This document shows positions 2,758 through 24,672 of a stretch of 64,000 nt of DNA, in pieces; position 1 is the first letter of the stretch; every line of letters begins with the position of its first letter. A model generated the notes under the pieces. The model was not told the origin of the DNA. It did not search any database and worked only from the letters and a program-made list of their open reading frames with translations. Position numbers and translations under genes: made by a program. The stretch spans positions 248,001-312,000 of the forward strand of contig NZ_ML769301.1 in the NCBI RefSeq assembly GCF_009720385.1, given 5' to 3'. This DNA comes from Catellatospora vulcania. Lineage in GTDB: Bacteria > Actinomycetota > Actinomycetes > Mycobacteriales > Micromonosporaceae.

Positions 2758-2919
2758 ATGAACCACCTCGACCTGGACGTCCAGGACGTCTCCACCGGCG
2801 ACTGGGACCAGCTCGTCACCGAGATCATGCGCAACGCCGGTGAGCTGTCCCCGCAGGACCCGGAGCTCGCCCCCGTCACCGGCTGCGGCTGCGGGTGCGC
2901 CTGCGGCTGCGGTTGCTGA
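2758..2919 (+). CDS. Precursor peptide of a thiazole-containing RiPP (TOMM/LAP), 53 aa
   Basis: An ATG preceded by GGAGGA at about 5 nt spacing opens a 53-codon gene. The N-terminal ~40 residues are an acidic leader (starts MNHLDLDVQDVSTGDW, with LVTEIMRNAGEL as a probable amphipathic helix bound by the RRE domain). The C-terminus is T-GCGCGCACGCGC-stop: six Cys, each preceded by Gly or Ala, and Cys as the final residue. YcaO enzymes convert Xaa-Cys to thiazoline, and SagB enzymes oxidise it to thiazole, so up to six thiazoles are possible. The core contains no Ser. The gene is immediately upstream of a complete YcaO/E1-like/SagB gene set on the same strand, which makes the assignment strong although no homologue search was possible. 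Confidence 0.9.
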   Translation: MNHLDLDVQDVSTGDWDQLVTEIMRNAGELSPQDPELAPVTGCGCGCACGCGC

Positions 2920-2934
2920 CCGTCTAAAACGAAC

Positions 2935-2972
2935 ACGCGACGGTGGTCGGCCACTGCGGGTCACCGTCGCGT
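2935..2972 (+). terminator. Hairpin between precursor gene and biosynthetic operon (probable attenuator)
   Basis: A perfect 11-bp inverted repeat, ACGCGACGGTG / CACCGTCGCGT, lies 15 nt after the precursor stop and ends 29 nt before the YcaO start. A partial terminator or processing site here would give far more precursor mRNA than enzyme mRNA, a common RiPP arrangement. The repeat is seen; the function is inferred. Confidence 0.6.
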
Positions 2973-3001
2973 CCCCTGTGGACTTTGTTACAGGAATGTC
3001 A

Positions 3002-4267
3002 ATGAGCGCAGATCTCGTCAGTCTGGTCAGCCCGCTGGGCGTGGTCAGCGGACTGCGGCCGCTGCTGCCGGACCGCGGCCTCGACCGGCTCAGCCACGTC
3101 GTCGCGTCCAGCGGCGACTCGCACACCGGCCACCACGGCGGCAGCCCGCAGCTGGGCACCGGGCGCGGTTTCGACGCCGGTCTCGCCACCACCGTCGCGA
3201 TCGCCGAAGCCGCCGAACGGTACGTGGGCAGCTACCCCGACGCCGACACCGTCCGGGCCACCGCCGCGGAACTGCCCGGCGCGGTCCTCGACCTGACCGG
3301 CCTGCCCCGCTGCTCAGACGCCGAATATGCGCACCCCGACTGCCACCTCGTCCCGGCCGACCCCGGCACGGAGATCCGCTGGATGCGCGGCACCGACCTG
3401 ATGTCCGGCGAACCGACCTGGGTGCCCGCCGTCATGGCCTGCTACGGGCTGCACCCCGAACCGGCCGAACGCTTCGTCTTCCAGATCTCCACCGGGTACG
3501 CCGTCCACGTCGAACCGCAGCGCGCCCTGCTCGGCGGGCTGATGGAGGTCATCGAACGCGACGCCATCGCCGTGACCTGGCTGCGGCGGCTGCGGCTGCC
3601 GCTGCTCGGACCCGCCGGGTTCAGCCCGGCGGTGCGCTACCTGCTCGACCACGGCCGCCGCCGCTTCCTGGACAACGTGCTGTTCAACGCCACCACCGAC
3701 CTGGGCATCCCCACGGTGTACGTGCTGCAGCAGGCCCCCCACGATGCAGAGGCCGCCAACCTGGTCGGCGCGGCGACCGGGCGCACCCTGGCGGACGCGG
3801 CGGAGAAGGCCCTCATCGAGATCGCCAACATCCGGCAGCTGTTCCCGCACGGCACGGCGCCCGTCGACGGCGACACCAGGTTCACCGACATCATGGACGG
3901 CGCGCGGTACATGGCCGTGGCGCAGCGAGCCGAAGCTTTCGGCTTCCTCACCGAGGACCTCGCGCACCGCCCCACCTCGGACAGCTGCCTGGAACTTCCG
4001 GCGGATCCGCATCAGGCGACCTCGGTGGTGCTGGAGCAGCTGCGGCGGCTCGGGGCGCAGGCGGTGTGCGTCGACCGGACCTCGGCCGAGCTGCGCCGTG
4101 TCGGGCTGGTCGCGCTGACCGTGGTGGTGCCGCGGCTGCAGCCCATGTCCCTGAACCCGCTGGCGCAGTTCCGTGCCCACCCCCGACTGAACGAGGCGCC
4201 GGCGGCGATGGGCGTGCCGGCCTCCCCGGAACAGGAGCAGAACCCGTGGCCGCAACCGTTCGCCTGA
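3002..4267 (+). CDS. YcaO-domain azoline-forming cyclodehydratase (TOMM D protein)
   Basis: A 421-aa ATP-dependent enzyme that phosphorylates backbone amides and cyclises Cys side chains to thiazolines. The ATP/Mg signatures are AIAEAAERY (residues 66-74) and EVIERDA (183-189). The protein ends ...NPWPQPFA, whose P-x-P-x-P (415-419) is the C-terminal motif of azoline-forming YcaO proteins, which separates it from amidine or thioamide YcaOs. The ATG at 3002 is preferred over the one at 2996 because the AGGA at 2992-2995 is 6 nt from 3002 but only 0-1 nt from 2996. It is a stand-alone D protein; its E1-like partners are encoded separately just downstream, the next gene overlapping it by 22 nt. 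Confidence 0.93.
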   Translation: MSADLVSLVSPLGVVSGLRPLLPDRGLDRLSHVVASSGDSHTGHHGGSPQLGTGRGFDAGLATTVAIAEAAERYVGSYPDADTVRATAAELPGAVLDLTGLPRCSDAEYAHPDCHLVPADPGTEIRWMRGTDLMSGEPTWVPAVMACYGLHPEPAERFVFQISTGYAVHVEPQRALLGGLMEVIERDAIAVTWLRRLRLPLLGPAGFSPAVRYLLDHGRRRFLDNVLFNATTDLGIPTVYVLQQAPHDAEAANLVGAATGRTLADAAEKALIEIANIRQLFPHGTAPVDGDTRFTDIMDGARYMAVAQRAEAFGFLTEDLAHRPTSDSCLELPADPHQATSVVLEQLRRLGAQAVCVDRTSAELRRVGLVALTVVVPRLQPMSLNPLAQFRAHPRLNEAPAAMGVPASPEQEQNPWPQPFA

Positions 4268-4869
4268 CCGAGACCGCGGTCGCCGCGGTGGGGGAGTTCG
4301 GCCACGCCGTGCGGTCCCGCCTGCTGGCCGCGGGCGCGACGGCACTGGACGCCGACCGGCCGCAACCGGGCGACGCGCGAGCCATGGTGCTCGTGTCGTG
4401 GCGGCCCGACCCGGACCGGGCCCAGCGGTTCGACGAGCTCGCGCACCGCGCCGGGATCGGCTGGCTGCCCGTGGTCGTGGAGCACCCGCGGCTGATCATC
4501 GGCCCGTGGGTGGCCCCTGGCGGGCCGTGCCACGACTGCTACAGCTTCCGCCGCGAGCAGCACGATCCCAAGTCGCGGCACCGTGCGGCGCTGCTGGCCG
4601 CGTACCGCGCTGACGACGACCTCGGCGTCTACGGCCATCTGCCGCACCACCTGCGCATCGCCGAAGCGCTCGTCGGGCTCATGCTGCAGAGCCCGCAACC
4701 CGGCATGACCACCATGGTCGACCTGGCCACGATGATGGTGAGCCGCGTCGACGTCATCGCCAGGCACGGCTGCCCGCACTGCGGCGTCGCCGACACCTGG
4801 GGAGACCCCCGGCTGGCCGCGGCCGTCGCCGAAACCGTGCACCGGCTGCCGGAAGGAGCACTGACGTGA
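4246..4869 (+). CDS. TOMM cyclodehydratase partner, E1/ThiF-like C-terminal domain with two CxxC pairs
   Basis: A 207-aa protein from a GTG start at 4246, with AGGAG at 4233-4237 (8-nt spacing) inside the end of the YcaO gene. The block WLPVVVEHPRLIIGPWVAPGGPCHDCYS and the later HGCPHCG resemble the bacteriocin cyclodehydratase partner domain (TIGR03882-like), in which Cys95/Cys98 and Cys176/Cys179 would hold a structural zinc. No nucleotide-binding glycine loop or recognisable RRE is visible, so it looks like the C-terminal half of an ocin-ThiF-like protein and may act with the next gene product to dock leader peptide and YcaO. Family call is fairly sure; division of labour is inferred. Confidence 0.78.
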   Translation: MAATVRLTETAVAAVGEFGHAVRSRLLAAGATALDADRPQPGDARAMVLVSWRPDPDRAQRFDELAHRAGIGWLPVVVEHPRLIIGPWVAPGGPCHDCYSFRREQHDPKSRHRAALLAAYRADDDLGVYGHLPHHLRIAEALVGLMLQSPQPGMTTMVDLATMMVSRVDVIARHGCPHCGVADTWGDPRLAAAVAETVHRLPEGALT

Positions 4870-6224
4870 GCCGGCTCGCGCATCCCGCGCTGGCGACCGG
4901 CCTCGCCGTCATCAGCACCGAGGACGGCCTGCTGATCGAAGGCGGTCCCAGCCGACGGCTGTTCACCGGCGCCGCCGCCCACGAGCTGCTGCCGCGACTG
5001 CTGCCGCTGCTGGACGGCCGCACCGGCCTCGCCGCGGTCGCCGACGAGGCAGGGGTGCCCGTCGCTCAGGTCGCCCAGGCCGTGGCGCTGCTGCACCGCA
5101 GCGGACTGCTCCACGACGGCCCCGCCGAGCACGGCGACGCCGCCGACGCCTTCCTGTCCCGCACCCTGGCGGCCGCGGGCAGCCACAACCGTCCGGCCGA
5201 GCTGCGCAAACAGCTGGCCGAAGCCACCGTCGTGGTCGCCACGGCAGGTCCGCTGGGCGACCTGCTCACTGCCGACCTGGCGCAATCGGGCATCGGCACG
5301 GTCACCGCGGACCCCACTCCCGGTGCGGCGCTGGCCATCGCGACCGACGACCGGCTCGCCGAGGTCGCCGCCACCGGCGTGCCGGTGCTCCGCATCGGCG
5401 GCGACGACCGCGGTGTCGAACTCGGGCCGCTGTTCACCGGAGCGGAAACCACCTGCCCGGACTGTTTCCTGACGGACGGCGCAGCCGGGTCCCGCACCTT
5501 CGGGCAGGCGGCGGCGCAACTGCTCAGCGGGCTGGCCGTGGCCGAGGCCGTCGGCCTGCTGACCCGGCTCGCCGATCCGGTCACCGGCCGCCGAATGCAC
5601 CGCATCGACACCGTCGATCTCAGCCGCACCATCCACGAGGTCACGCCCTCAGCCGCGTGCCGCACCTGCGCCATGACCGACGACGGCGTGCTCGGGCGGC
5701 TGGAGTGGCTGAACCGGCGGGCTTCCTGGCAGGTGACCAGCGCCCGGCCGGTCCCCGCCACCGCCGACACCGACCTGGCGTCCTCGCCCCGGGTGCCACT
5801 GGACCAGGTCCCGTCCTGGCTGCGGACGCTGCTGACGGCGGCGACGGCCCGGCCTTACGCCGACACCTACCTGATCGGTGCGCCCGGCCTGGCGTTTCCG
5901 GTCCACCGCTGGTCACCGGCCACCCAGGCGCTCATCGCCACCCGTGGCGACCTCAGCGCCGCCCCGCCGATCGCCGGACTGCCGGACGCCCCGGTGGCCG
6001 TGCTCGTGTTCGTCTCCGCGACCACGCGCTTGACCTCGGCCTACGCCGCACAGAGCCTGCGCCGGGCGTTCCTGGCCGCCGGTCGGGCGGTCGCGGCCGT
6101 CGCCGCCGGTCACCGCGCCGTGCTCGCCGACACGGTCGATCCGGCCCTGTCCGAGCTGCTGGAACTGCACGACGGCGGGGAACACCTCGCGGCCGTCGTC
6201 GGCATCTACCCGGAGCGGCCCTGA
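4866..6224 (+). CDS. RRE-E1-like TOMM docking protein with degenerate nitroreductase-like C-terminus
   Basis: 452 aa, starting at a GTG that overlaps the previous stop as GTGA, with AAGGAG upstream. Residues ~35-85 (LLPRLLPLLDGRTG...ALLHRSGLLHDG) look like the winged-helix RiPP recognition element that binds leader peptides. Residues ~120-270 repeat the E1-like partner domain seen in the preceding gene, with Cys197/Cys200 and Cys265/Cys268. The C-terminal ~120 residues (FPVHRWSPATQALI..., then AYAAQSLRRAFLAAGRAV) align by eye with the second half of the SagB protein at 7863-9212 (VYRYLPDRHALAVV, AYSLTLRNAGVAL) but lack its KY pair and FMN-binding blocks. It is thus probably a scaffold, not an enzyme. 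The last assignment is my inference. Confidence 0.75.
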   Translation: MSRLAHPALATGLAVISTEDGLLIEGGPSRRLFTGAAAHELLPRLLPLLDGRTGLAAVADEAGVPVAQVAQAVALLHRSGLLHDGPAEHGDAADAFLSRTLAAAGSHNRPAELRKQLAEATVVVATAGPLGDLLTADLAQSGIGTVTADPTPGAALAIATDDRLAEVAATGVPVLRIGGDDRGVELGPLFTGAETTCPDCFLTDGAAGSRTFGQAAAQLLSGLAVAEAVGLLTRLADPVTGRRMHRIDTVDLSRTIHEVTPSAACRTCAMTDDGVLGRLEWLNRRASWQVTSARPVPATADTDLASSPRVPLDQVPSWLRTLLTAATARPYADTYLIGAPGLAFPVHRWSPATQALIATRGDLSAAPPIAGLPDAPVAVLVFVSATTRLTSAYAAQSLRRAFLAAGRAVAAVAAGHRAVLADTVDPALSELLELHDGGEHLAAVVGIYPERP

Positions 6225-6697
6225 TGACGATCCAGCCCAAGGACACCGCCCTGAGCGCCGCACTGCGACTCGACGTCACCGGCCCGCGCCGGGCCAGGCC
6301 CGCCGACGACATCGGCGCCATCGTCATCCGATCCCTGGCGGCCTCACCGGAGCCGCTGACCGCCTGCGTCGCCGTGTTCGGCCTGGCGGGCATCCCGGTC
6401 GGCACGTACTGCGTCGACGCCGCGGGATACCTCCACCGGACCGACCCGCAGCCGCCGCCGCTGGCGCACCTCGCCGCCGACGTCGCCGTGCTGCTCGGCG
6501 GACCGGCCACCGCCTCGGCCGCCGACCACCGGGCACTCGCGGTCGCGGCCGGTGTCGTCTCGCACCACCTCGCCACCCGGCTCGGCACGAGTCTGCATCA
6601 GGTGACCTGCGACGACGAAACCATTGCCTGGCCACTGGCGACCGTGAACGGACCGCTGACCCACCTGACCACCGTCACCGGCAAGGAAGCCCCATGA
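6224..6697 (+). CDS. Small protein of the RiPP operon, possible inactive nitroreductase-like fragment
   Basis: 157 aa. The ATG at 6224 overlaps the previous stop by one base (TGATG), so translation is coupled. I do not recognise a family with certainty. The middle portion, GIPVGTYCVDAAGYLHR...ADVAVLLGGP...HRALAVAAGVVSHHLATRLG, follows the SagB pattern of a strand-turn (PGVYRYLPDRH) followed by a long helix with a conserved small-residue face, but has no FMN-binding Arg/Ser block and no KY pair. It may be a non-catalytic partner of the dehydrogenase or a scaffold piece. It contains two Cys and no signal peptide or membrane segment. Confidence 0.55.
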   Translation: MTIQPKDTALSAALRLDVTGPRRARPADDIGAIVIRSLAASPEPLTACVAVFGLAGIPVGTYCVDAAGYLHRTDPQPPPLAHLAADVAVLLGGPATASAADHRALAVAAGVVSHHLATRLGTSLHQVTCDDETIAWPLATVNGPLTHLTTVTGKEAP

Positions 6698-7857
6698 CCG
6701 AATACCAACTGTCCACTGTGATCATGGCGCATCCGAGCCGGCTCGCCCTCGCCGAGGCGCTCGCCGACAGCCTGCCCGAGCTCAAGCCCGACATCGTCGT
6801 GGACCCCGATCCGCACGGGCCGCCGTCGTCGCTGCGCACCGCCGCGGTGGCCTGGTCGTTCGTACCCGAGAACGCTACCCACCACCTGGTGCTGCAGGAC
6901 GACGCCGTGCCATGCCGGGGCTTCGCCGAGGCTGTGCACGCCGCGATCGGGCAGTACCCGCACGCCGCCCTGGCGCTGTTCACCGAGTGGACCTCGATGA
7001 CCGCCCACCACCTGCGCATGGCCGCCCTCGCGGGCGGGTCCTGGGCGGGAGTCGTGGACGAGTACGTGCCGAGCGTCGCGCTGGTCCTGCCCGCGCAGGT
7101 CGCCCGCGAGTTCGGCGAGGCCGCCACCCGCAACCTGCGCGAATGGACCCCCACCGACGACGTGGCGCTGATGAACTTCCTCCGCGACCGCAACGTCGCC
7201 GCCATCTGCCGCATCCCGAACCTCATCGACCACGACTCGCCGGACAGCCTCACCGGCAACCTGCACCAGGGCCCGCGCCGTTCGGCCTGCTTCGCCGACG
7301 ACGTGCCGCAGCCGCGCGCGGACGCGCTGCTGGGCGTGGCCGACCTGCTGCCGACGTTCGCGCACTACCAGATGCCCGACTTCGGCTCCCGGCCGTACTT
7401 CGCGCTGCGCAAGCCGCTGGACGACGGGGGACTGCCCTGGTCGATCCGGGCCACCGAGCAGTGGCTGGCCGACACCGGCCTGGACCCGGCGGCGGTGACG
7501 GAACTGGCCCGCGCGCACACTGACCGTTGGCGGCGGCAGCACGCGCTGCTCGCCGACGACATGCTCGACCGGCTGTGGCTGACGCCGTTCGCGATCGGCG
7601 TCTGCCTGACCCTGCCGTCGGTCCGGCTCTACCAGCCCGACGGCACACCGCTGCCCAGCCGGTTCCCGGCCACCGACGAGGCAGCCTTGGAAGCCCTGCT
7701 GGCGGATCCGGTGATGCGGCGGGTCTTCACCACCCTGCCGCAGGCGCACCTGCACCCCGTCGCCACCCGCGAGGTGCTCGACAGCCTTGAACAGCCCCTG
7801 GGCGAACTCATGCTCGACGCCGTCCGGGCCGGACACCGCCATGCTCGGAACATCTAG
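6694..7857 (+). CDS. GT-A-fold glycosyltransferase-like protein of the RiPP operon
   Basis: 387 aa, with its ATG overlapping the previous stop as ATGA. The first ~220 residues look like a retaining or GT25-like sugar transferase: STVIMAHPSR at the N-terminus, then HHLVLQDDAVPC (LQDDA at 67-71) in the position of the metal/nucleotide-sugar D-x-D motif. Next come a region with Trp-Thr-Ser and PTDDVALMNFLRDRN, and PNLIDHDSPDSLTGN, which recalls the end of LPS-type transferase domains. The remaining ~150 residues are unrecognised. It may glycosylate the peptide or make a sugar-linked intermediate. Fold assignment is moderate; acceptor and donor are unknown. Confidence 0.6.
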   Translation: MTEYQLSTVIMAHPSRLALAEALADSLPELKPDIVVDPDPHGPPSSLRTAAVAWSFVPENATHHLVLQDDAVPCRGFAEAVHAAIGQYPHAALALFTEWTSMTAHHLRMAALAGGSWAGVVDEYVPSVALVLPAQVAREFGEAATRNLREWTPTDDVALMNFLRDRNVAAICRIPNLIDHDSPDSLTGNLHQGPRRSACFADDVPQPRADALLGVADLLPTFAHYQMPDFGSRPYFALRKPLDDGGLPWSIRATEQWLADTGLDPAAVTELARAHTDRWRRQHALLADDMLDRLWLTPFAIGVCLTLPSVRLYQPDGTPLPSRFPATDEAALEALLADPVMRRVFTTLPQAHLHPVATREVLDSLEQPLGELMLDAVRAGHRHARNI

Positions 7858-7862
7858 CGGCA

Positions 7863-9212
7863 ATGATCACGCTGCGCCTCGACGACGGGCTGACCACCGA
7901 AACCACCACGACCGCCGACCTGCTGATCATCGGCAAGGGCCGCGACCCGGTGGCGCTGCACGACGCGGACGGGTCGGTGGCGGCCGTGCTGGAGGCGCTG
8001 CGCCGGCCCACGACCTGGCAGCAGTTGCGGGCGCACGGGCCCTTTGCGGCCGGACGGATCGACGCGCTGATCCGGCGGCTGCTCACCGCCGGAGTGCTCA
8101 TCCTGGGCTGCGCCGACGAGAACGGCGACCTGGCCACTGCCCGCATCCGCTCCCGGCTCGCCGAGCTGCGGCCCGACGCCGAGCCGGCCGACGACCAGCC
8201 GGTACAGCTGTCGCCGTGCGCGCTGCTGCGGCGGCTCGACGACCGGGCCGTGGTCGAGTCCGCCCACGACGGGACCGTCGTCGAGCTGCATCGGCCCGAG
8301 CTGGCGGCGGTGGTGGCGGGACTCTGCGCGCCCATCGACGCGGCGGCGGTCGCCCGGCTCGCCCCGGGCGGCTCCCAGCTGCTGCGCCTGCTGGCCGCGG
8401 TCGGCCTGGTCACCGCGCCCGGCCCGGCGGCCGGACGCCCGACGCACGCGGTGTGGACGCATACCCGCAGCCGAAACGGCCTGGTCGAACTGCGCACACC
8501 CGCACCCGGGACCCTGGACGAACCGCCCGCGGGGCCTGCCGCCGACACCGATATCGCGCTGCCCGTGCCGGACCAGGCGGCGCTGCGCCGCACCGACCCG
8601 CCGCTGGCCGAGGTCATGGAGACCCGCCGCTCGGTACGCCGGTTCGGCGACAAGCCGCTGGCCGTGGCGCAACTGGGGGAGCTGTTGCACCGGGTGGCGC
8701 GCATCCAGCAGCGGCTGCCCGCCGACCCCGCCGACGAGCGCTCCTACTCGTACACGCTGCGGCCGGCGCCCTCGGCCGGGGCGATGCACGAACTCGACTA
8801 CTACCTCACGGTCCGCGCCTGCCACGGCCTGGCCCCCGGCGTCTACCGCTACCTGCCGGACCGGCACGCGCTCGCCGTCGTCAACCGGGACACCGTGCCG
8901 CTGGTCCGGCTGGTCAACGCCGCCTACCTGGCGATCAACCGGGTGTCGGTGCCGCAGGTGCTGATCAGCCTCGCGGCGCGCTTCGACCGGCCCACCCGCA
9001 AATACGGCGACCTGGCGTACTCGTTGACGCTGCGCAACGCCGGGGTGGCGCTGCAGTCGGTGTACCTGTGCGCCACCGCGATGGGCCTCGGCGCGTGCGC
9101 CGTCGGCAGCGGCGACGCCGCGGACTTCGCCGAGGCGTCCGGCCTGGACCCGCACGAGGTGTCCGCTGTGGCCGAGATCGTCATCGGTTCCCTCCCCGGA
9201 CAGGACGTGTGA
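7863..9212 (+). CDS. SagB-type FMN-dependent azoline dehydrogenase
   Basis: 449 aa. It oxidises thiazolines made by the YcaO complex to aromatic thiazoles. The C-terminal half is a nitroreductase-fold domain: METRRSVRRFG (~252-262) for FMN phosphate binding, RPAPSAGAMHELDYYL (300-315), VYRYLPDRH, and GLGACAVGSGD (408-418). Lys380-Tyr381 in TRKYGDLAY corresponds to the Lys-Tyr pair needed for catalysis in McbC/BcerB-type enzymes. The N-terminal ~230 residues are a winged-helix-like region common in actinobacterial SagB fusions. No strong ribosome binding site is visible; the gene starts 5 nt after the upstream stop, so coupling is likely. It is the only nitroreductase-like protein of the operon with all catalytic motifs. 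Confidence 0.9.
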   Translation: MITLRLDDGLTTETTTTADLLIIGKGRDPVALHDADGSVAAVLEALRRPTTWQQLRAHGPFAAGRIDALIRRLLTAGVLILGCADENGDLATARIRSRLAELRPDAEPADDQPVQLSPCALLRRLDDRAVVESAHDGTVVELHRPELAAVVAGLCAPIDAAAVARLAPGGSQLLRLLAAVGLVTAPGPAAGRPTHAVWTHTRSRNGLVELRTPAPGTLDEPPAGPAADTDIALPVPDQAALRRTDPPLAEVMETRRSVRRFGDKPLAVAQLGELLHRVARIQQRLPADPADERSYSYTLRPAPSAGAMHELDYYLTVRACHGLAPGVYRYLPDRHALAVVNRDTVPLVRLVNAAYLAINRVSVPQVLISLAARFDRPTRKYGDLAYSLTLRNAGVALQSVYLCATAMGLGACAVGSGDAADFAEASGLDPHEVSAVAEIVIGSLPGQDV

Positions 9213-9824
9213 ATGGACGACTCGACCCCGTCCGCCGACCCCAGGCTGCCGGCCCTGGGTTTCCGGCGGCTGCTGCTGGTCGCCACCGGCTCGCTGAACG
9301 CCGCCTTCCTGCCCCGCGACCTCGCCTGGCTGCGTATGGCCTACCCGGAGCTGGAGACCCAGGTCGTGCTGACCCGGTCGGCGCTGCAGTTCCTCACCCC
9401 GACCGCGGTCGGCGCGATCACCGGCCGGGCCGCGGCCGTGGACGAATGGGCCGGGCCGCTCGCTGAGGCAGTGCACGTGACCTGGCAGCAGTGGGCGCAG
9501 GCGGTCATGGTGTACCCGGCCGGCCTGAACTACCTCGCCCGGCTGGCGCTCGGCCTGGCCGACTCGCCCAGCCTGCTGGCGATCCAGTGCAGCGCCGCAC
9601 CGGTCGTGGTGGCCCCGGCGCTGCCGCCCGGCGGCTGGGCCAGCCCGGTCACCGCCGCGCACGTCGCCGCGCTGGCGCAGCGGCCGACGGTCACCGTGCT
9701 GCCACCGGTGCCGGTGCGCAGCTTCACCACCGGCCGCGACGACGCGCACGGGCCGCCGCCGTTCACCGCCGCGCTGGGCACCCTCGAGCTGCTGCGCCAC
9801 CGACTCCAGGAGGAAACCGCGTGA
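9213..9824 (+). CDS. HFCD-family flavoprotein, peptidyl-cysteine decarboxylase-like (EpiD/LanD-like)
   Basis: 203 aa, starting directly after the SagB stop. It has the layout of the homo-oligomeric flavin-containing Cys decarboxylases: N-terminal VATGSLNAAFLPRDL (flavin contact), His88 in AVHVTWQQWA at the place of the catalytic His of EpiD, PAGLN (102-106) for the PxxxN motif, LALGLADSP, and APALPPGGW (134-142) in place of the APAMN.MW block. In RiPP pathways these enzymes oxidatively decarboxylate a C-terminal Cys to an enethiol; the precursor here ends in Cys, which fits. The closest alternative is a phosphopantothenoylcysteine decarboxylase (CoaC), but the operon position and lack of a CoaB partner argue against it. 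Confidence 0.8.
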   Translation: MDDSTPSADPRLPALGFRRLLLVATGSLNAAFLPRDLAWLRMAYPELETQVVLTRSALQFLTPTAVGAITGRAAAVDEWAGPLAEAVHVTWQQWAQAVMVYPAGLNYLARLALGLADSPSLLAIQCSAAPVVVAPALPPGGWASPVTAAHVAALAQRPTVTVLPPVPVRSFTTGRDDAHGPPPFTAALGTLELLRHRLQEETA

Positions 9825-10894
9825 GCGCCGGCCCAAGAGTGCTGTTCCTGGCGCGCGGCCACGGCTTCGGGCACGCCGCCAGGGACCTGCGGATCATCAG
9901 GGCCATGCGTGCCCTGCGGCCCGACGTCGAGATCCAGGTGATGGCCTCCGGCAGCGCCGCGGTCTACCTGGACCTCTACGGCGAGTCCTGCATCGACATG
10001 GGCATCGGCGACCACGAGGACATGACCCCGGCGGCCGGTGCGCGGGTCTGGGCGCTGATGGACCGGCACGACCCGTTCGACCTGGTCGTCGCCGACGAGG
10101 TCGTGTGGTCGCTGGTGTACTGCGTCAAGCGCTGGCGGCGGCGCGCGATCCTGCTGACCGACTGGTTCTACTCCGAGCTGGGCGCACCGGAATCCGATCC
10201 GATCCTGGACCAGGCCGGTGAGATCCTGCTCCTCGACTTCTCCGTCGCCCACCCGGGCCCGTTCGGCGTCACCAACCCGATCCAGGCGTTCGGGCCGGTG
10301 GTCGAGGAGTTCCGGGTGGACCGCGAGGCGGCGCGCGCCGCGCTCGGAGCCGCGGCGTCGGAGACGATCGTGGTGCTGACCATCGGCGGGATGACCGCGA
10401 TGGTCGACAACACCGCGATCGCGGAACTCACCGTACGCACGTGGCTGGAGCACGCGCCGCCCGGACATCGGCTGTTCGTGCTGGCCGAGCCGTTCTGCCC
10501 GGTGCCCGATGACCGGGCCGCAGACGTCGTCTGGGCCGGGTTCACCGCGGAACCGGAGAAGTACTACGCCGCGGCCGACCTGGTGGTGGCCAACGCCAAC
10601 GGCACCGTCATCGGCGACCTGGTGTGGAACCGGATTCCGGTGCTGGCCATGACCCACCCCGCCGTGACGTACCCGGACTCCTTCGGGCTGCGCGTCAAGG
10701 CGATGAGCGAGGCCGGCATGACCGTCCACGGCGAGGCCACGGTGTCGACGTCGGCGCAGTGGCAGCTGATGGACGAGGCGAAACGCAACGACTGCCGGCC
10801 CGACCCGGCATTCGAGTGGACCACCGGCGAGCAGGTCGCCCGCCACCTGCTGGCACGGCTCGACTACATGCTGGCCAAATCGGCGACCGGCTGA
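9821..10894 (+). CDS. GT-B glycosyltransferase of the RiPP operon (MurG/UGT-like)
   Basis: 357 aa from a GTG overlapping the previous stop as GTGA, with AGGAGGA upstream. The N-terminus RVLFLARGHGFGHAARDLRIIRAMR is the glycine/His-rich first loop of GT-B glycosyltransferases. The C-terminal half has TIGGMT, VVWAGFTAEPEKYYAAADLVVANANGTVIGDLVWNRIPVLAM, which follows the nucleotide-sugar-binding region of family 28/MurG-like enzymes. No signal peptide or membrane segment is visible. As the last gene of the operon it probably adds a sugar to the modified peptide, perhaps on a Cys or enethiol sulfur. Donor and attachment site are inference. Confidence 0.82.
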   Translation: MSAGPRVLFLARGHGFGHAARDLRIIRAMRALRPDVEIQVMASGSAAVYLDLYGESCIDMGIGDHEDMTPAAGARVWALMDRHDPFDLVVADEVVWSLVYCVKRWRRRAILLTDWFYSELGAPESDPILDQAGEILLLDFSVAHPGPFGVTNPIQAFGPVVEEFRVDREAARAALGAAASETIVVLTIGGMTAMVDNTAIAELTVRTWLEHAPPGHRLFVLAEPFCPVPDDRAADVVWAGFTAEPEKYYAAADLVVANANGTVIGDLVWNRIPVLAMTHPAVTYPDSFGLRVKAMSEAGMTVHGEATVSTSAQWQLMDEAKRNDCRPDPAFEWTTGEQVARHLLARLDYMLAKSATG

Positions 10895-10900
10895 GCACGG

Positions 10901-10946
10901 ACCGGCGGGCCCGGCCGATCACCATGGATCGGCCGGGCCCGCCGGT
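10901..10946. terminator. Strong bidirectional terminator after RiPP operon and katG
   Basis: A perfect 20-bp inverted repeat (arms 10901-10920 and 10927-10946, 6-nt loop ACCATG) separates the convergent RiPP operon and katG. It marks the 3' boundary of the RiPP transcript. Confidence 0.85.
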
Positions 10947-10956
10947 GGCCACTCGA

Positions 10957-15504
<4,548 letters not shown>

Positions 15505-22725: not shown

Positions 22726-24672
22726 TCAGTCGCGCTCGGTCGCGAAGTGCGCCACCACGCCTTCGCTGATCTCGTGCGGGGCGAGCCCGAGCCGCTCGGC
22801 CGCCGCCTGCACCACCAGCTCCACCTGATCCTGGCCGACCGCGTCGAGCAGGTACGGAGCGACCGCCCGGAAGGCCCGGACCCGGTCCTCCGGCCACGCG
22901 GCGTTGAACCGCTCGGGAAACGCCCTGGCCAGCGCATGCCCGACCCCCAGCACCGGCAGGGGCCGCTCGGCGGCCAGCAGGTCGAGCAGCGCGTCACCGG
23001 GTTCCCGCGCCGCCAGCAGTTCCGAGACATCCTTGAACCCGGTCGGCCCGGTCCCGGACACCGGTCCGTGCGCCCAGGTGACGGCCAGCGGATAGGCGCG
23101 GTCGAGCGCCTTGGCGCCGGGAGCGTCCGCGTCGAACGAAATGACCAGGGCGGTGTCCGGACCGGACAGGCGGTCCAGCAGGGCGAACTGGGCCCGGGTG
23201 AACGCGGTGCCGCACGAGGCCACCACCACGCTGCGTACGCCCTCGACCTCCAGCTCGCGGTAGATCAGCTGGGCGGCGATCGCGTCGGTGGGGCCTTCGA
23301 CGACGACGAACCGGTCCGGCGGGCCCTGGCCCAGTGTCTGGGGGGCCAGCCCGAACAGCAGCCTGCCCTTGTGGAAGACCGCCGTCTCGGGGGTGTTGAA
23401 GTACTTCGCCGGGCTCCGCCCGGACAGGTCCCGGCCGGTGAATCCGGCGACCTGGCCGTCGGGCGCGTGGACGGGGAACACCAGCCGGTCCCGGAACAGG
23501 TCGTACAGGCCGCCGTCCAGCCGGCCGGCGGCGACCAGGCCTGCTGCCAGCAGGACCTGATCGGTGAAGCCGCGGGCACGCAGGTGCCGCAGCAGGACGT
23601 CACCGCCGGCGGGTGCGACGCCCAGCTGCCAGTCGCTGCGGGGCGCGGCGGCGGCGATGCCCCGCGACCGCAGGTACGCGGCCGCCGGGTGGCTCACCGG
23701 CAGCTGGGCGGCGTAGAACTCCGCCGCGGCGGCGTTGGCCGCGTACAGGGCCGCCCGGTCGACCGGCGCGGCGTCCGATGCCGCGTCTGCCGCCCTGGCC
23801 CGCCGACGTTGCGCGGCGGTGCGCGGGTTGCGGCGTTTTGGAGCCGGTGCGGGCGGGGCAGCGGAGCGCCGCTCCAGCGCGTGCTCCAGCCGGTCGGTGA
23901 ACGCGTCGGACAGACCGGTGATCACGGATACCGTCGCCACGGCCTCGTCAGGTGTGGACGGGACCGACGGCGCAGCCCGGTGGCGGGATTCCGGGGCGGC
24001 GACGCCGGGTGGCTGCAGGCCGAACCGCCGTGCCACCACGTGGGCGACACCGGCGGCCTGCACGTCGCGGACCGGCCCCGCGGGCAGCAGCCGCCGGGCC
24101 AGGTGGTGGACGAGATGTCCGGCGGCCGCCGACAGTGGCAGGTGGGCGGCCAGATCGAGCCGGTCGCCGTCGACATGCGCCGCGGTGGCCAGTCCCCGGC
24201 CCAGCCGCACGGCGAGCCCCACCCCGTCGGCCAGTGCCGCGAGCGCCGACACCACCCGCACCAGGTCGTACGCGGGCCGGTGCGGAGCGGGCATCGCGTC
24301 GGTCTGGGTGACGTCGAAGACCCTGACGACGTCGAATCCGCCCTCATCGAGCGGTTGGAGCAGCGCGACGGCCCGCTCGCCGCGGCGCACGTGCGCTCCC
24401 CGTGCCCGCCACTGGTCGTAGGTCCCCAGGTCGGTGGCGTCCGGACGCTGGCGGGCGATCAGCAGGAGGTCGTCGACGCCGCGGCCGGGATGCCGGGCCG
24501 CGACGTCGAGCAGGCGGGTCCAGCCCGGCGCGCCGGCGAGGTCGGCGATGGCCAGCTGGCGGGTGAGCCTGGCGGCGTGCAGCGCGGCCCGGCCGGCCGG
24601 ATGCGTCCGGGCGACGCGGAGGTCGTGGGAGGTGGTGGTCAACACGCGCTCCTTCCACATCGGAGGCCTCAC
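22726..24672 (-). CDS. ArdC-like / DnaG-type TOPRIM primase fusion
   Basis: Up to 648 aa; starts at 24672 (GTG), 24660 (ATG) or 24645 (GTG) are possible and none has ideal spacing to the GGAAGGAG at ~24650. Residues ~60-105 (LLLIARQRPDATDLGTYDQWRARGAHVRRGERAVALL) resemble the N-terminal ssDNA-binding domain of ArdC-type antirestriction proteins. The C-terminal half has DnaG-like features: HPAAAYLRSRGI, the FRDRLVFPVHAPDGQVAGFTGRDL block, and a TOPRIM with VVVEGPTDAIA and SFDADAPGAKALDRA, the catalytic Glu and DxD. No CHC2 zinc finger is visible. Similar fusions (TraC-like primases) serve plasmid or conjugative DNA, so this may be a mobile-element remnant in a chromosomal context. Confidence 0.78.
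   Translation of the reverse strand: MRPPMWKERVLTTTSHDLRVARTHPAGRAALHAARLTRQLAIADLAGAPGWTRLLDVAARHPGRGVDDLLLIARQRPDATDLGTYDQWRARGAHVRRGERAVALLQPLDEGGFDVVRVFDVTQTDAMPAPHRPAYDLVRVVSALAALADGVGLAVRLGRGLATAAHVDGDRLDLAAHLPLSAAAGHLVHHLARRLLPAGPVRDVQAAGVAHVVARRFGLQPPGVAAPESRHRAAPSVPSTPDEAVATVSVITGLSDAFTDRLEHALERRSAAPPAPAPKRRNPRTAAQRRRARAADAASDAAPVDRAALYAANAAAAEFYAAQLPVSHPAAAYLRSRGIAAAAPRSDWQLGVAPAGGDVLLRHLRARGFTDQVLLAAGLVAAGRLDGGLYDLFRDRLVFPVHAPDGQVAGFTGRDLSGRSPAKYFNTPETAVFHKGRLLFGLAPQTLGQGPPDRFVVVEGPTDAIAAQLIYRELEVEGVRSVVVASCGTAFTRAQFALLDRLSGPDTALVISFDADAPGAKALDRAYPLAVTWAHGPVSGTGPTGFKDVSELLAAREPGDALLDLLAAERPLPVLGVGHALARAFPERFNAAWPEDRVRAFRAVAPYLLDAVGQDQVELVVQAAAERLGLAPHEISEGVVAHFATERD

What the first reader, a model, noticed from the sequence alone, without database searches (positions are those of the whole stretch)
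2758..10894. Undescribed-looking RiPP operon: poly(Gly-Cys) precursor with YcaO, split E1-like partners, SagB, Cys decarboxylase and two glycosyltransferases
Directly seen: a 53-aa precursor and eight downstream same-strand enzyme genes with overlaps or gaps of at most 5 nt, bounded by a 20-bp-arm terminator. Established: YcaO with C-terminal PxPxP forms azolines, SagB with a Lys-Tyr pair oxidises them, HFCD flavoproteins decarboxylate C-terminal Cys, and GT-B enzymes glycosylate. Inferred: the product is a poly-thiazole peptide with a decarboxylated terminus and sugar(s). I know of no named class with this gene combination. No transporter, protease or immunity gene is present.
Basis: partly seen in the sequence, partly recalled or inferred. 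Interest (0 to 1): 0.93.

Follow-up and report, generated by a model that had tools for sequence, protein, structure and literature searches.

The report
Predicted glycosylated thiazole-peptide operon
An actinobacterium and a few scattered relatives carry a compact nine-gene operon that probably turns a short glycine-cysteine peptide into a chain of thiazole rings, trims its end and adds sugar, a combination of enzymes I did not find described together.

Summary
Window 2758-10894 (Catellatospora, Micromonosporaceae) encodes a 53-aa precursor ending GCGCGCACGCGC and eight tightly packed genes: YcaO, two E1-like partners, a small protein, a glycosyltransferase, SagB dehydrogenase, CypD-like cysteine decarboxylase (HFCD), and a second, probable glycosyltransferase. 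The nine genes keep their order in four other Catellatospora and in Natronoglycomyces albus; Spirilliplanes has a rearranged set. All seven precursors beside an HFCD end in Gly-Cys, although cores diverge. All nine genes show purifying selection.

Corrections: the first glycosyltransferase is GT-A, not GT-B (high-confidence model). E1b has a leader-binding-like winged helix, an E1 domain and a decayed nitroreductase-like tail. The small protein may be a degenerate nitroreductase. Distant relatives add an ABC exporter, a PIG-L deacetylase or a NodA acyltransferase.

Best reading: a linear azole peptide with oxidative C-terminal decarboxylation and glycosylation. No dehydratase was found, and two of five Catellatospora cores have no Ser at all, so the usual trap for decarboxylated cysteine (AviCys) is missing. 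The fate of that enethiol (4-unsubstituted thiazole, S-sugar or another crosslink) is the open chemical question. New variant of a known kind (LAP/TOMM); all chemistry is inferred.

The parts
2758..2919 (+). Precursor peptide, 53 aa; leader LDLDVQDVSTGDWDQLV, Cys-rich end GCGCGCACGCGC
   Evidence: dN/dS 0.21-0.24 against three Catellatospora
2935..2972 (+). Hairpin between precursor and ycaO; arms GCGACGGTG / CACCGTCGC present in the five Catellatospora operons; possible attenuator favouring precursor expression (function inferred)
3002..4267 (+). YcaO cyclodehydratase (SagD family), tail NPWPQPFA
4246..4869 (+). E1a: short E1-like partner, two CxxC pairs, GTG start
   Evidence: TIGR03882 55.1 bits, cut-off 36.9; alignment A7; no PDB sequence match
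4866..6224 (+). E1b: winged-helix (RRE-like) N-terminus, E1-like middle with two CxxC pairs, degenerate nitroreductase-like C-terminus
   Evidence: TIGR03882 18.6 bits, below cut-off; HTH_47 in 6 of 7 members and ThiF in 4 of 7, both below cut-off in the window protein; LynD 5e-6, MccB, nitroreductase 3hj9 0.008, PbtF 0.07; hhalign 100% over its length to E1-nitroreductase proteins of nine related loci
6224..6697 (+). Small protein, possibly a degenerate nitroreductase-like subunit
6694..7857 (+). Glycosyltransferase of GT-A fold, invariant Gln-Asp-Asp 68-70
7863..9212 (+). SagB-type azoline dehydrogenase, RKYGD
9213..9824 (+). HFCD: CypD-like flavoprotein cysteine decarboxylase, His88 conserved
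9821..10894 (+). Probable GT-B glycosyltransferase, invariant RGHGFGHAARD
   Evidence: TIGR00661 E 8e-4, below cut-off; no Pfam match at cut-off, no PDB sequence match; alignment A5
10901..10946 (.). Perfect 20-bp hairpin between the operon and convergent katG; probable U-less bidirectional terminator (function inferred)

Best explanation
A RiPP operon for a linear azole peptide. E1b binds the leader through its winged-helix (RRE-like) domain. YcaO with E1a cyclodehydrates Cys in the Gly-Cys core to thiazolines, and SagB oxidises them to thiazoles. HFCD oxidatively decarboxylates the C-terminal Cys. Because no dehydratase supplies Dha/Dhb, the resulting aminoenethiol is not captured as ordinary AviCys. 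Most likely it closes onto the preceding Gly carbonyl as a 4-unsubstituted C-terminal thiazole. The GT-A enzyme and the probable GT-B enzyme add sugar(s). Leader removal and export use genes elsewhere in the genome. Shown here: gene identities, conserved order, terminal Cys, fold of the first glycosyltransferase, purifying selection. Inferred: all chemistry. My step estimates: thiazoles 0.85; C-terminal decarboxylation 0.7; glycosylation of this peptide 0.7; a 4-unsubstituted terminal thiazole 0.35.
For: YcaO (TIGR03604), E1a (TIGR03882) and SagB (TIGR03605) exceed curated cut-offs. SagB Lys-Tyr in 7 of 7. HFCD profile best matches CypD, E 3.7e-28; the active-site His position is kept in 6 of 6 aligned. 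Precursors beside an HFCD end GC in 7 of 7 operons; 18 of the 20 precursor-search hits end in Cys. Nine genes in the same order in five Catellatospora and N. albus. Nocardiopsis sp. NPDC049922 has precursor and GT1 locus tags 25 apart, which fits four genes between them. dN/dS 0.18-0.53 over all nine genes. GT-A fold. TldD/E-like proteins in the genome.
Against: No product and no mass data. The NCBIfam CypD model scores 78 against a cut-off of 215, and the genome has three other flavoproteins of this Pfam family. L115 has a precursor ending CC and both glycosyltransferases, but tblastn found no HFCD in the 20 kb around it or the next 16 kb on one side, so a terminal Cys does not by itself imply decarboxylation. 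Three of five Catellatospora cores do contain one Ser. The GT-B assignment is weak. The terminal-thiazole step rests on chemical plausibility alone.
Confidence: 0.6

Rival explanations
1. Cypemycin-like route: HFCD makes the enethiol and an internal Cys loses H2S to give Dha, so a Cys-derived AviCys ring forms; only part of the core becomes thiazole.
For: HFCD profile is closest to CypD. In cypemycin Dha-19 derives from Cys-19, not Ser (PMC10880069 and PMC4979651 passages). Some relatives have cores such as GTICACSCSCASCGC.
Against: Linaridin, thioamitide and class V pathways are described with kinase/lyase-like partners (PMC10880069, PMC8153245 passages); none is among the nine operon proteins. 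The one APH-family gene about 5 kb upstream has no match in the DNA held around the relatives' operons.
Confidence: 0.12
2. The enethiol (or a Cys thiol) is the glycosylation site: a glycosyltransferase caps the C-terminal enethiol as an S-glycoside.
For: No dehydratase found to trap the enethiol. Both glycosyltransferases accompany the HFCD in 7 of 7 HFCD operons (window). Combined O- and S-glycosylation by a RiPP glycosyltransferase (thurandacin) was seen here only as a cited title.
Against: L115 keeps both glycosyltransferases without a detected HFCD. A Thr or Ser precedes the core in the Catellatospora and N. albus precursors and could be an O-glycosylation site.
Confidence: 0.15
3. The peptide keeps most Cys thiols and serves as a metal-binding or redox peptide; YcaO modifies only a few positions.
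For: Very high Cys content.
Against: A SagD-type YcaO, two E1 partners and SagB are kept under purifying selection. Gly-Cys is a classic thiazole substrate (recalled). No metal-uptake family hit among the nine proteins.
Confidence: 0.1
4. A decaying or silent cluster without a product.
For: No transporter or protease inside; E1b tail and small protein look degenerate.
Against: All nine genes open with dN/dS below 1 against three species; order kept in a different genus.
Confidence: 0.05

Closest known systems
Linear azole peptides / thiopeptide azole machinery (e.g. goadsporin GodD/GodE)
   Same: YcaO with E1-like partners and an FMN azoline dehydrogenase; short acidic leader. YcaO relatives at about 35-40% identity occur in loci such as L170, which has a thiopeptide-type protein (TIGR03891 above cut-off).
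   Different: No LanB-type dehydratase found here; two of five Catellatospora cores lack Ser; HFCD and glycosyltransferases are added. Goadsporin uses GodF/GodG for dehydration and GodH as acetyltransferase (PMC5303826 passages).
CypD (cypemycin, a linaridin) and thioamitide decarboxylases (TvaF/TsaF)
   Same: Flavoprotein family and C-terminal Cys substrate; the His position is kept relative to 6jls (TvaF by recall).
   Different: Those pathways supply Dha/Dhb for AviCys; no such partner found here. CypD has Asn at the aligned His position.
Bottromycin terminal thiazole (P450 oxidative decarboxylation; recalled)
   Same: The proposed C-terminal decarboxylated thiazole would be the same end group.
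   Different: There a P450 is used; here an HFCD would be used.
Dehydrazoles (PMC10676384, one passage and term counts seen)
   Same: YcaO plus dehydrogenase azole peptides.
   Different: They carry a LanM-type dehydratase; the paper's text has 0 occurrences of flavoprotein or glycosyl-.
Multi-precursor azole loci L120, L170-L173
   Same: Homologous YcaO, E1a and E1b (L120 and L170-L173).
   Different: Four to six short Ser/Thr/Cys precursors in a row; E1b is followed by a nitroreductase-like protein; no HFCD by tblastn.

Membership tests
Linear azol(in)e-containing peptide (LAP/TOMM) | YcaO of the azoline-forming SagD type | tested here: met
   TIGR03604 241.1 bits vs cut-off 219.25
Linear azol(in)e-containing peptide (LAP/TOMM) | E1-like / leader-binding partner | tested here: met
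   E1a TIGR03882 above cut-off; E1b similar to LynD (E 5e-6), PbtF only 0.07, HTH_47 below cut-off
Linear azol(in)e-containing peptide (LAP/TOMM) | FMN azoline dehydrogenase (for azoles) | tested here: met
   TIGR03605 140.7 vs 78.4; Lys-Tyr 7 of 7
Linear azol(in)e-containing peptide (LAP/TOMM) | Precursor with heterocyclisable Cys/Ser/Thr core | tested here: met
Linear azol(in)e-containing peptide (LAP/TOMM) | Azoles in the product | not testable with these tools
   needs mass spectrometry/NMR
AviCys-containing RiPP (linaridin, thioamitide, class V lanthipeptide) | HFCD cysteine decarboxylase | tested here: met
   homology only: (CypD model below cut-off)
AviCys-containing RiPP (linaridin, thioamitide, class V lanthipeptide) | Dehydratase (LanB/LanM, or kinase plus lyase) supplying Dha/Dhb | tested here: not met
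   none among the nine operon proteins or the 16 flanking proteins scanned, except an APH gene without a match near the relatives' operons; the rest of the genome was not searched for dehydratases
Thiopeptide | LanB pieces and pyridine synthase | tested here: not met
   none among the same 25 proteins
Thioamitide | TfuA partner of YcaO | tested here: not met
   no TfuA hit in the nine proteins
GT-A glycosyltransferase (GT1) | GT-A fold with acidic metal motif | tested here: met
   model; invariant Q68-D69-D70
GT-B glycosyltransferase (last gene) | GT-B fold / family profile | tested here: inconclusive
   TIGR00661 E 8e-4 below cut-off; no Pfam cut-off match, no PDB sequence match; no model made

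The most novel reading that the evidence does not exclude
A new RiPP subclass in which an HFCD works without any dehydroamino acid: the C-terminal Gly-Cys is oxidatively decarboxylated and the aminoenethiol is either cyclodehydrated directly to a 4-unsubstituted thiazole (a flavoprotein route to the end that bottromycin makes with a P450, recalled) or capped by a sugar. The remaining Gly-Cys repeats become a poly-thiazole rod that is glycosylated. In distant relatives it would be further tailored by deacetylation (PIG-L) or NodA-type N-acylation, giving glyco-lipo azole peptides.
Probability: 0.4. Interest if true: 0.82.

Novelty: new variant of a known kind. Interest (0 to 1): 0.64.

Why it matters
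In the RiPP pathways discussed in the passages read, flavoprotein cysteine decarboxylases are coupled to Dha/Dhb trapping. An operon that keeps the decarboxylase, the terminal Gly-Cys and the azole machinery, with no dehydratase found, asks directly what else can trap a C-terminal enethiol. The operon is small, self-contained and has natural core variants, so it can be refactored in a laboratory Streptomyces. It also offers candidate glycosyltransferases for azole peptides, one with no Pfam match.

Tried and rejected
Chance or misread ORF: rejected (conserved order; dN/dS). Thiopeptide: no LanB piece or pyridine synthase among the proteins scanned. Thioamide YcaO: no TfuA. Cluster continuing into the flanks: scanned flanks are OYE, MerR, katG, Fur, FAD monooxygenase, glyoxalase, GAF, GGDEF/EAL, MarR, primase-like, APH, HEAT, TPR, TnpB-like, serpin and GH76; the APH gene has no match in the relatives' loci. 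Plasmid origin: no PLSDB match at megablast sensitivity.

NodA as a regular partner: over cut-off in 8 of 300 genomes of the family, none Catellatospora. Among genomes with GT1-family matches, only G051 has the two close together.

Exporter in the own genome: the N. albus ABC protein gave 33 generic hits. The best candidate, L205:8192-10060, is 38% identical over 604 columns, with no RiPP-like neighbour by eye. No orthologue is claimed.

'Small protein as nitroreductase remnant' is only suggestive: hhalign 6%, pLDDT 69, no Foldseek match at E 0.001.

Literature was limited to the held open-access library. Searches returned 0 papers; 16 (12 papers), 30 (1), 68 (10, 9 listed), 69 (28, 20 listed), 86 (14, 12 listed) and 90 (4) returned lists. 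Read as passages or term counts only: PMC4603692 (0 occurrences of decarboxyl-, glycosyl-, flavoprotein), PMC7794033, PMC10676384, PMC5303826, PMC8120280, PMC7470986, PMC10885120, PMC10880069, PMC4979651, PMC8153245. Subscription journals are not covered, so absence in print is not shown.

Rows dropped: of the 80 loci, context was examined for 3 (81-90% identity); the other 77, at 33% or less, were not. Of 36 YcaO matches, 13 were fetched as regions, 3 read as L031-L033 and 1 is the window; 19 were not examined. Of 10 non-own matches, 8 were fetched; L169 is cut by its contig end. L203 and L204 were only searched by tblastn. GT1 dN/dS against L031 used an end coordinate that ran past its stop codon (flagged). 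The intergenic hairpins of the relatives were folded without shuffles.

Full report
Observation. The window lies in a Catellatospora-type genome: G000, contig C2:248001-312000, 8.83 Mb, one YcaO match at E 0.001 with this query; C. coxensis, C. sichuanensis and C. bangladeshensis have the YcaO at 81-90% identity. That gap folds into a hairpin (z -2.77) whose arms GCGACGGTG / CACCGTCGC occur in all five Catellatospora operons. The end hairpin is a perfect 20-bp stem, z -5.98, without a T-run, between the operon and convergent katG.

Decarboxylase. Single-sequence search gives 7cfu then CypD; the family profile gives CypD (3.7e-28), 7cfu, 6jls, and further down MrsD and EpiD. The NCBIfam CypD model is matched below its cut-off (78 vs 215). 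The residue aligned with the active-site His is invariant in six members. The Asn of the PASANT-type motif (recalled) is Asn or His here, Asp in CypD and Ala in 6jls, so it is not diagnostic.

Conservation. L113 (Spirilliplanes, precursor identical to P0089) has the GT-B gene and HFCD upstream, a PIG-L gene overlapping HFCD, and only a 93-aa weakly similar ORF in place of the small protein. L115 (G051) has precursor, YcaO, E1a, E1b, a short nitroreductase, an ABC exporter, both glycosyltransferases and a NodA-family acyltransferase, but no HFCD detected. HFCD lies beside YcaO in 6 of 24 fetched YcaO loci plus the window (16 loci, 8). In the genus, 5 of 11 genomes carry the close YcaO (81-100%). 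katG lies downstream in the window and L031, upstream in L033 and L111, and was not found in L032, so the set behaves as a unit. dN/dS against three species is 0.18-0.53 over all genes and 0.21-0.24 for the precursor.

Precursor family. The seven HFCD-associated precursors end GC and share LDLDVQDVS..DW (LDLDAQDVT..SW in Spirilliplanes). Cores range from GCGCGCACGCGC to GCCASSVRCGC and CGCSCASCSCASCTSCGC. Of the 20 hits, 18 end in Cys and 10 in GC; the two that do not end in Cys are the weakest (E 0.07 and 0.84). Some relatives without a detected HFCD end otherwise (...PPNCI in L114), but L115 ends CC.

Mechanism. By established family functions: leader binding by E1b, cyclodehydration by YcaO/E1a, oxidation by SagB, oxidative decarboxylation by HFCD. 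In the reviewed pathways the enethiol adds to Dha or Dhb (PMC10880069, PMC8153245 passages). Nothing found in this operon makes those residues. The window and C. coxensis cores contain only Gly, Ala and Cys after the Thr that precedes them; the other three Catellatospora cores have one Ser. Hence the trap probably differs. I favour closure onto the preceding Gly carbonyl to a 4-unsubstituted thiazole, because the terminal Gly-Cys is kept in all seven HFCD operons; S-glycosylation and Cys-derived AviCys remain. Leader removal may use TldD/E-like proteins encoded elsewhere; TldD/E removes the leader of microcin B17 (PMC10885120 passage). The exporter is unknown.

Novelty. It meets the LAP criteria testable here and fails the dehydratase criterion of AviCys families. 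I found no description of the combination in the searches named in Tried and rejected, which cover only an open-access library. I rate it a new variant of a known kind, with one chemically open step.

Noticed in passing
L115:4251-4808 (-): NodA-family N-acyltransferase (PF02474 E 1.8e-40; TIGR04245 106 bits, below its cut-off of 175) directly after the two glycosyltransferases of a related azole operon in G051; suggests a lipidated amino-sugar on a RiPP.
   Followed up: partly
L113:5606-6295 (-): PIG-L (GlcNAc de-N-acetylase family) gene overlapping the HFCD gene in the Spirilliplanes locus; hints that the sugar may be an N-acetyl amino-sugar there.
   Followed up: partly
L117:8263-8574 (-): 103-aa Cys-rich candidate precursor with an acidic leader and GGCHGCGGHGGCHGC repeats near YcaO/E1/nitroreductase genes (given in reversed coordinates 11328-11639).
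   Followed up: no
L120, L170-L173: Related azole loci with four to six short Ser/Thr/Cys precursors in a row; L170 has a thiopeptide-type protein (TIGR03891); LanB-like large genes by eye only.
   Followed up: partly
L114:12807-13613 (+): MNIO-family enzyme (best NCBIfam model: bufferin maturase, below cut-off) in an azole locus with YcaO, E1-nitroreductase, a second nitroreductase and, by eye, an ABC exporter.
   Followed up: no
L167 and L168 (G000 C28 and C4): Two further homologues of the GT-A enzyme without a Pfam match in the same genome, one beside a GT-B gene, one near NRPS-like genes (the latter by eye).
   Followed up: no
L202:6591-8456 (+), upstream of the window: 622-aa protein with a Cas12f1-like TNB domain (PF07282).
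   Followed up: no
L202:14486-15784 (-): Serpin (PF00079) near the operon; a homologue (75%) also lies beside the C. coxensis operon (L031:6134-7342).
   Followed up: no
22729-24660 (-): Protein with DnaG-type primase N-terminal and Toprim-like domains; context not examined.
   Followed up: no
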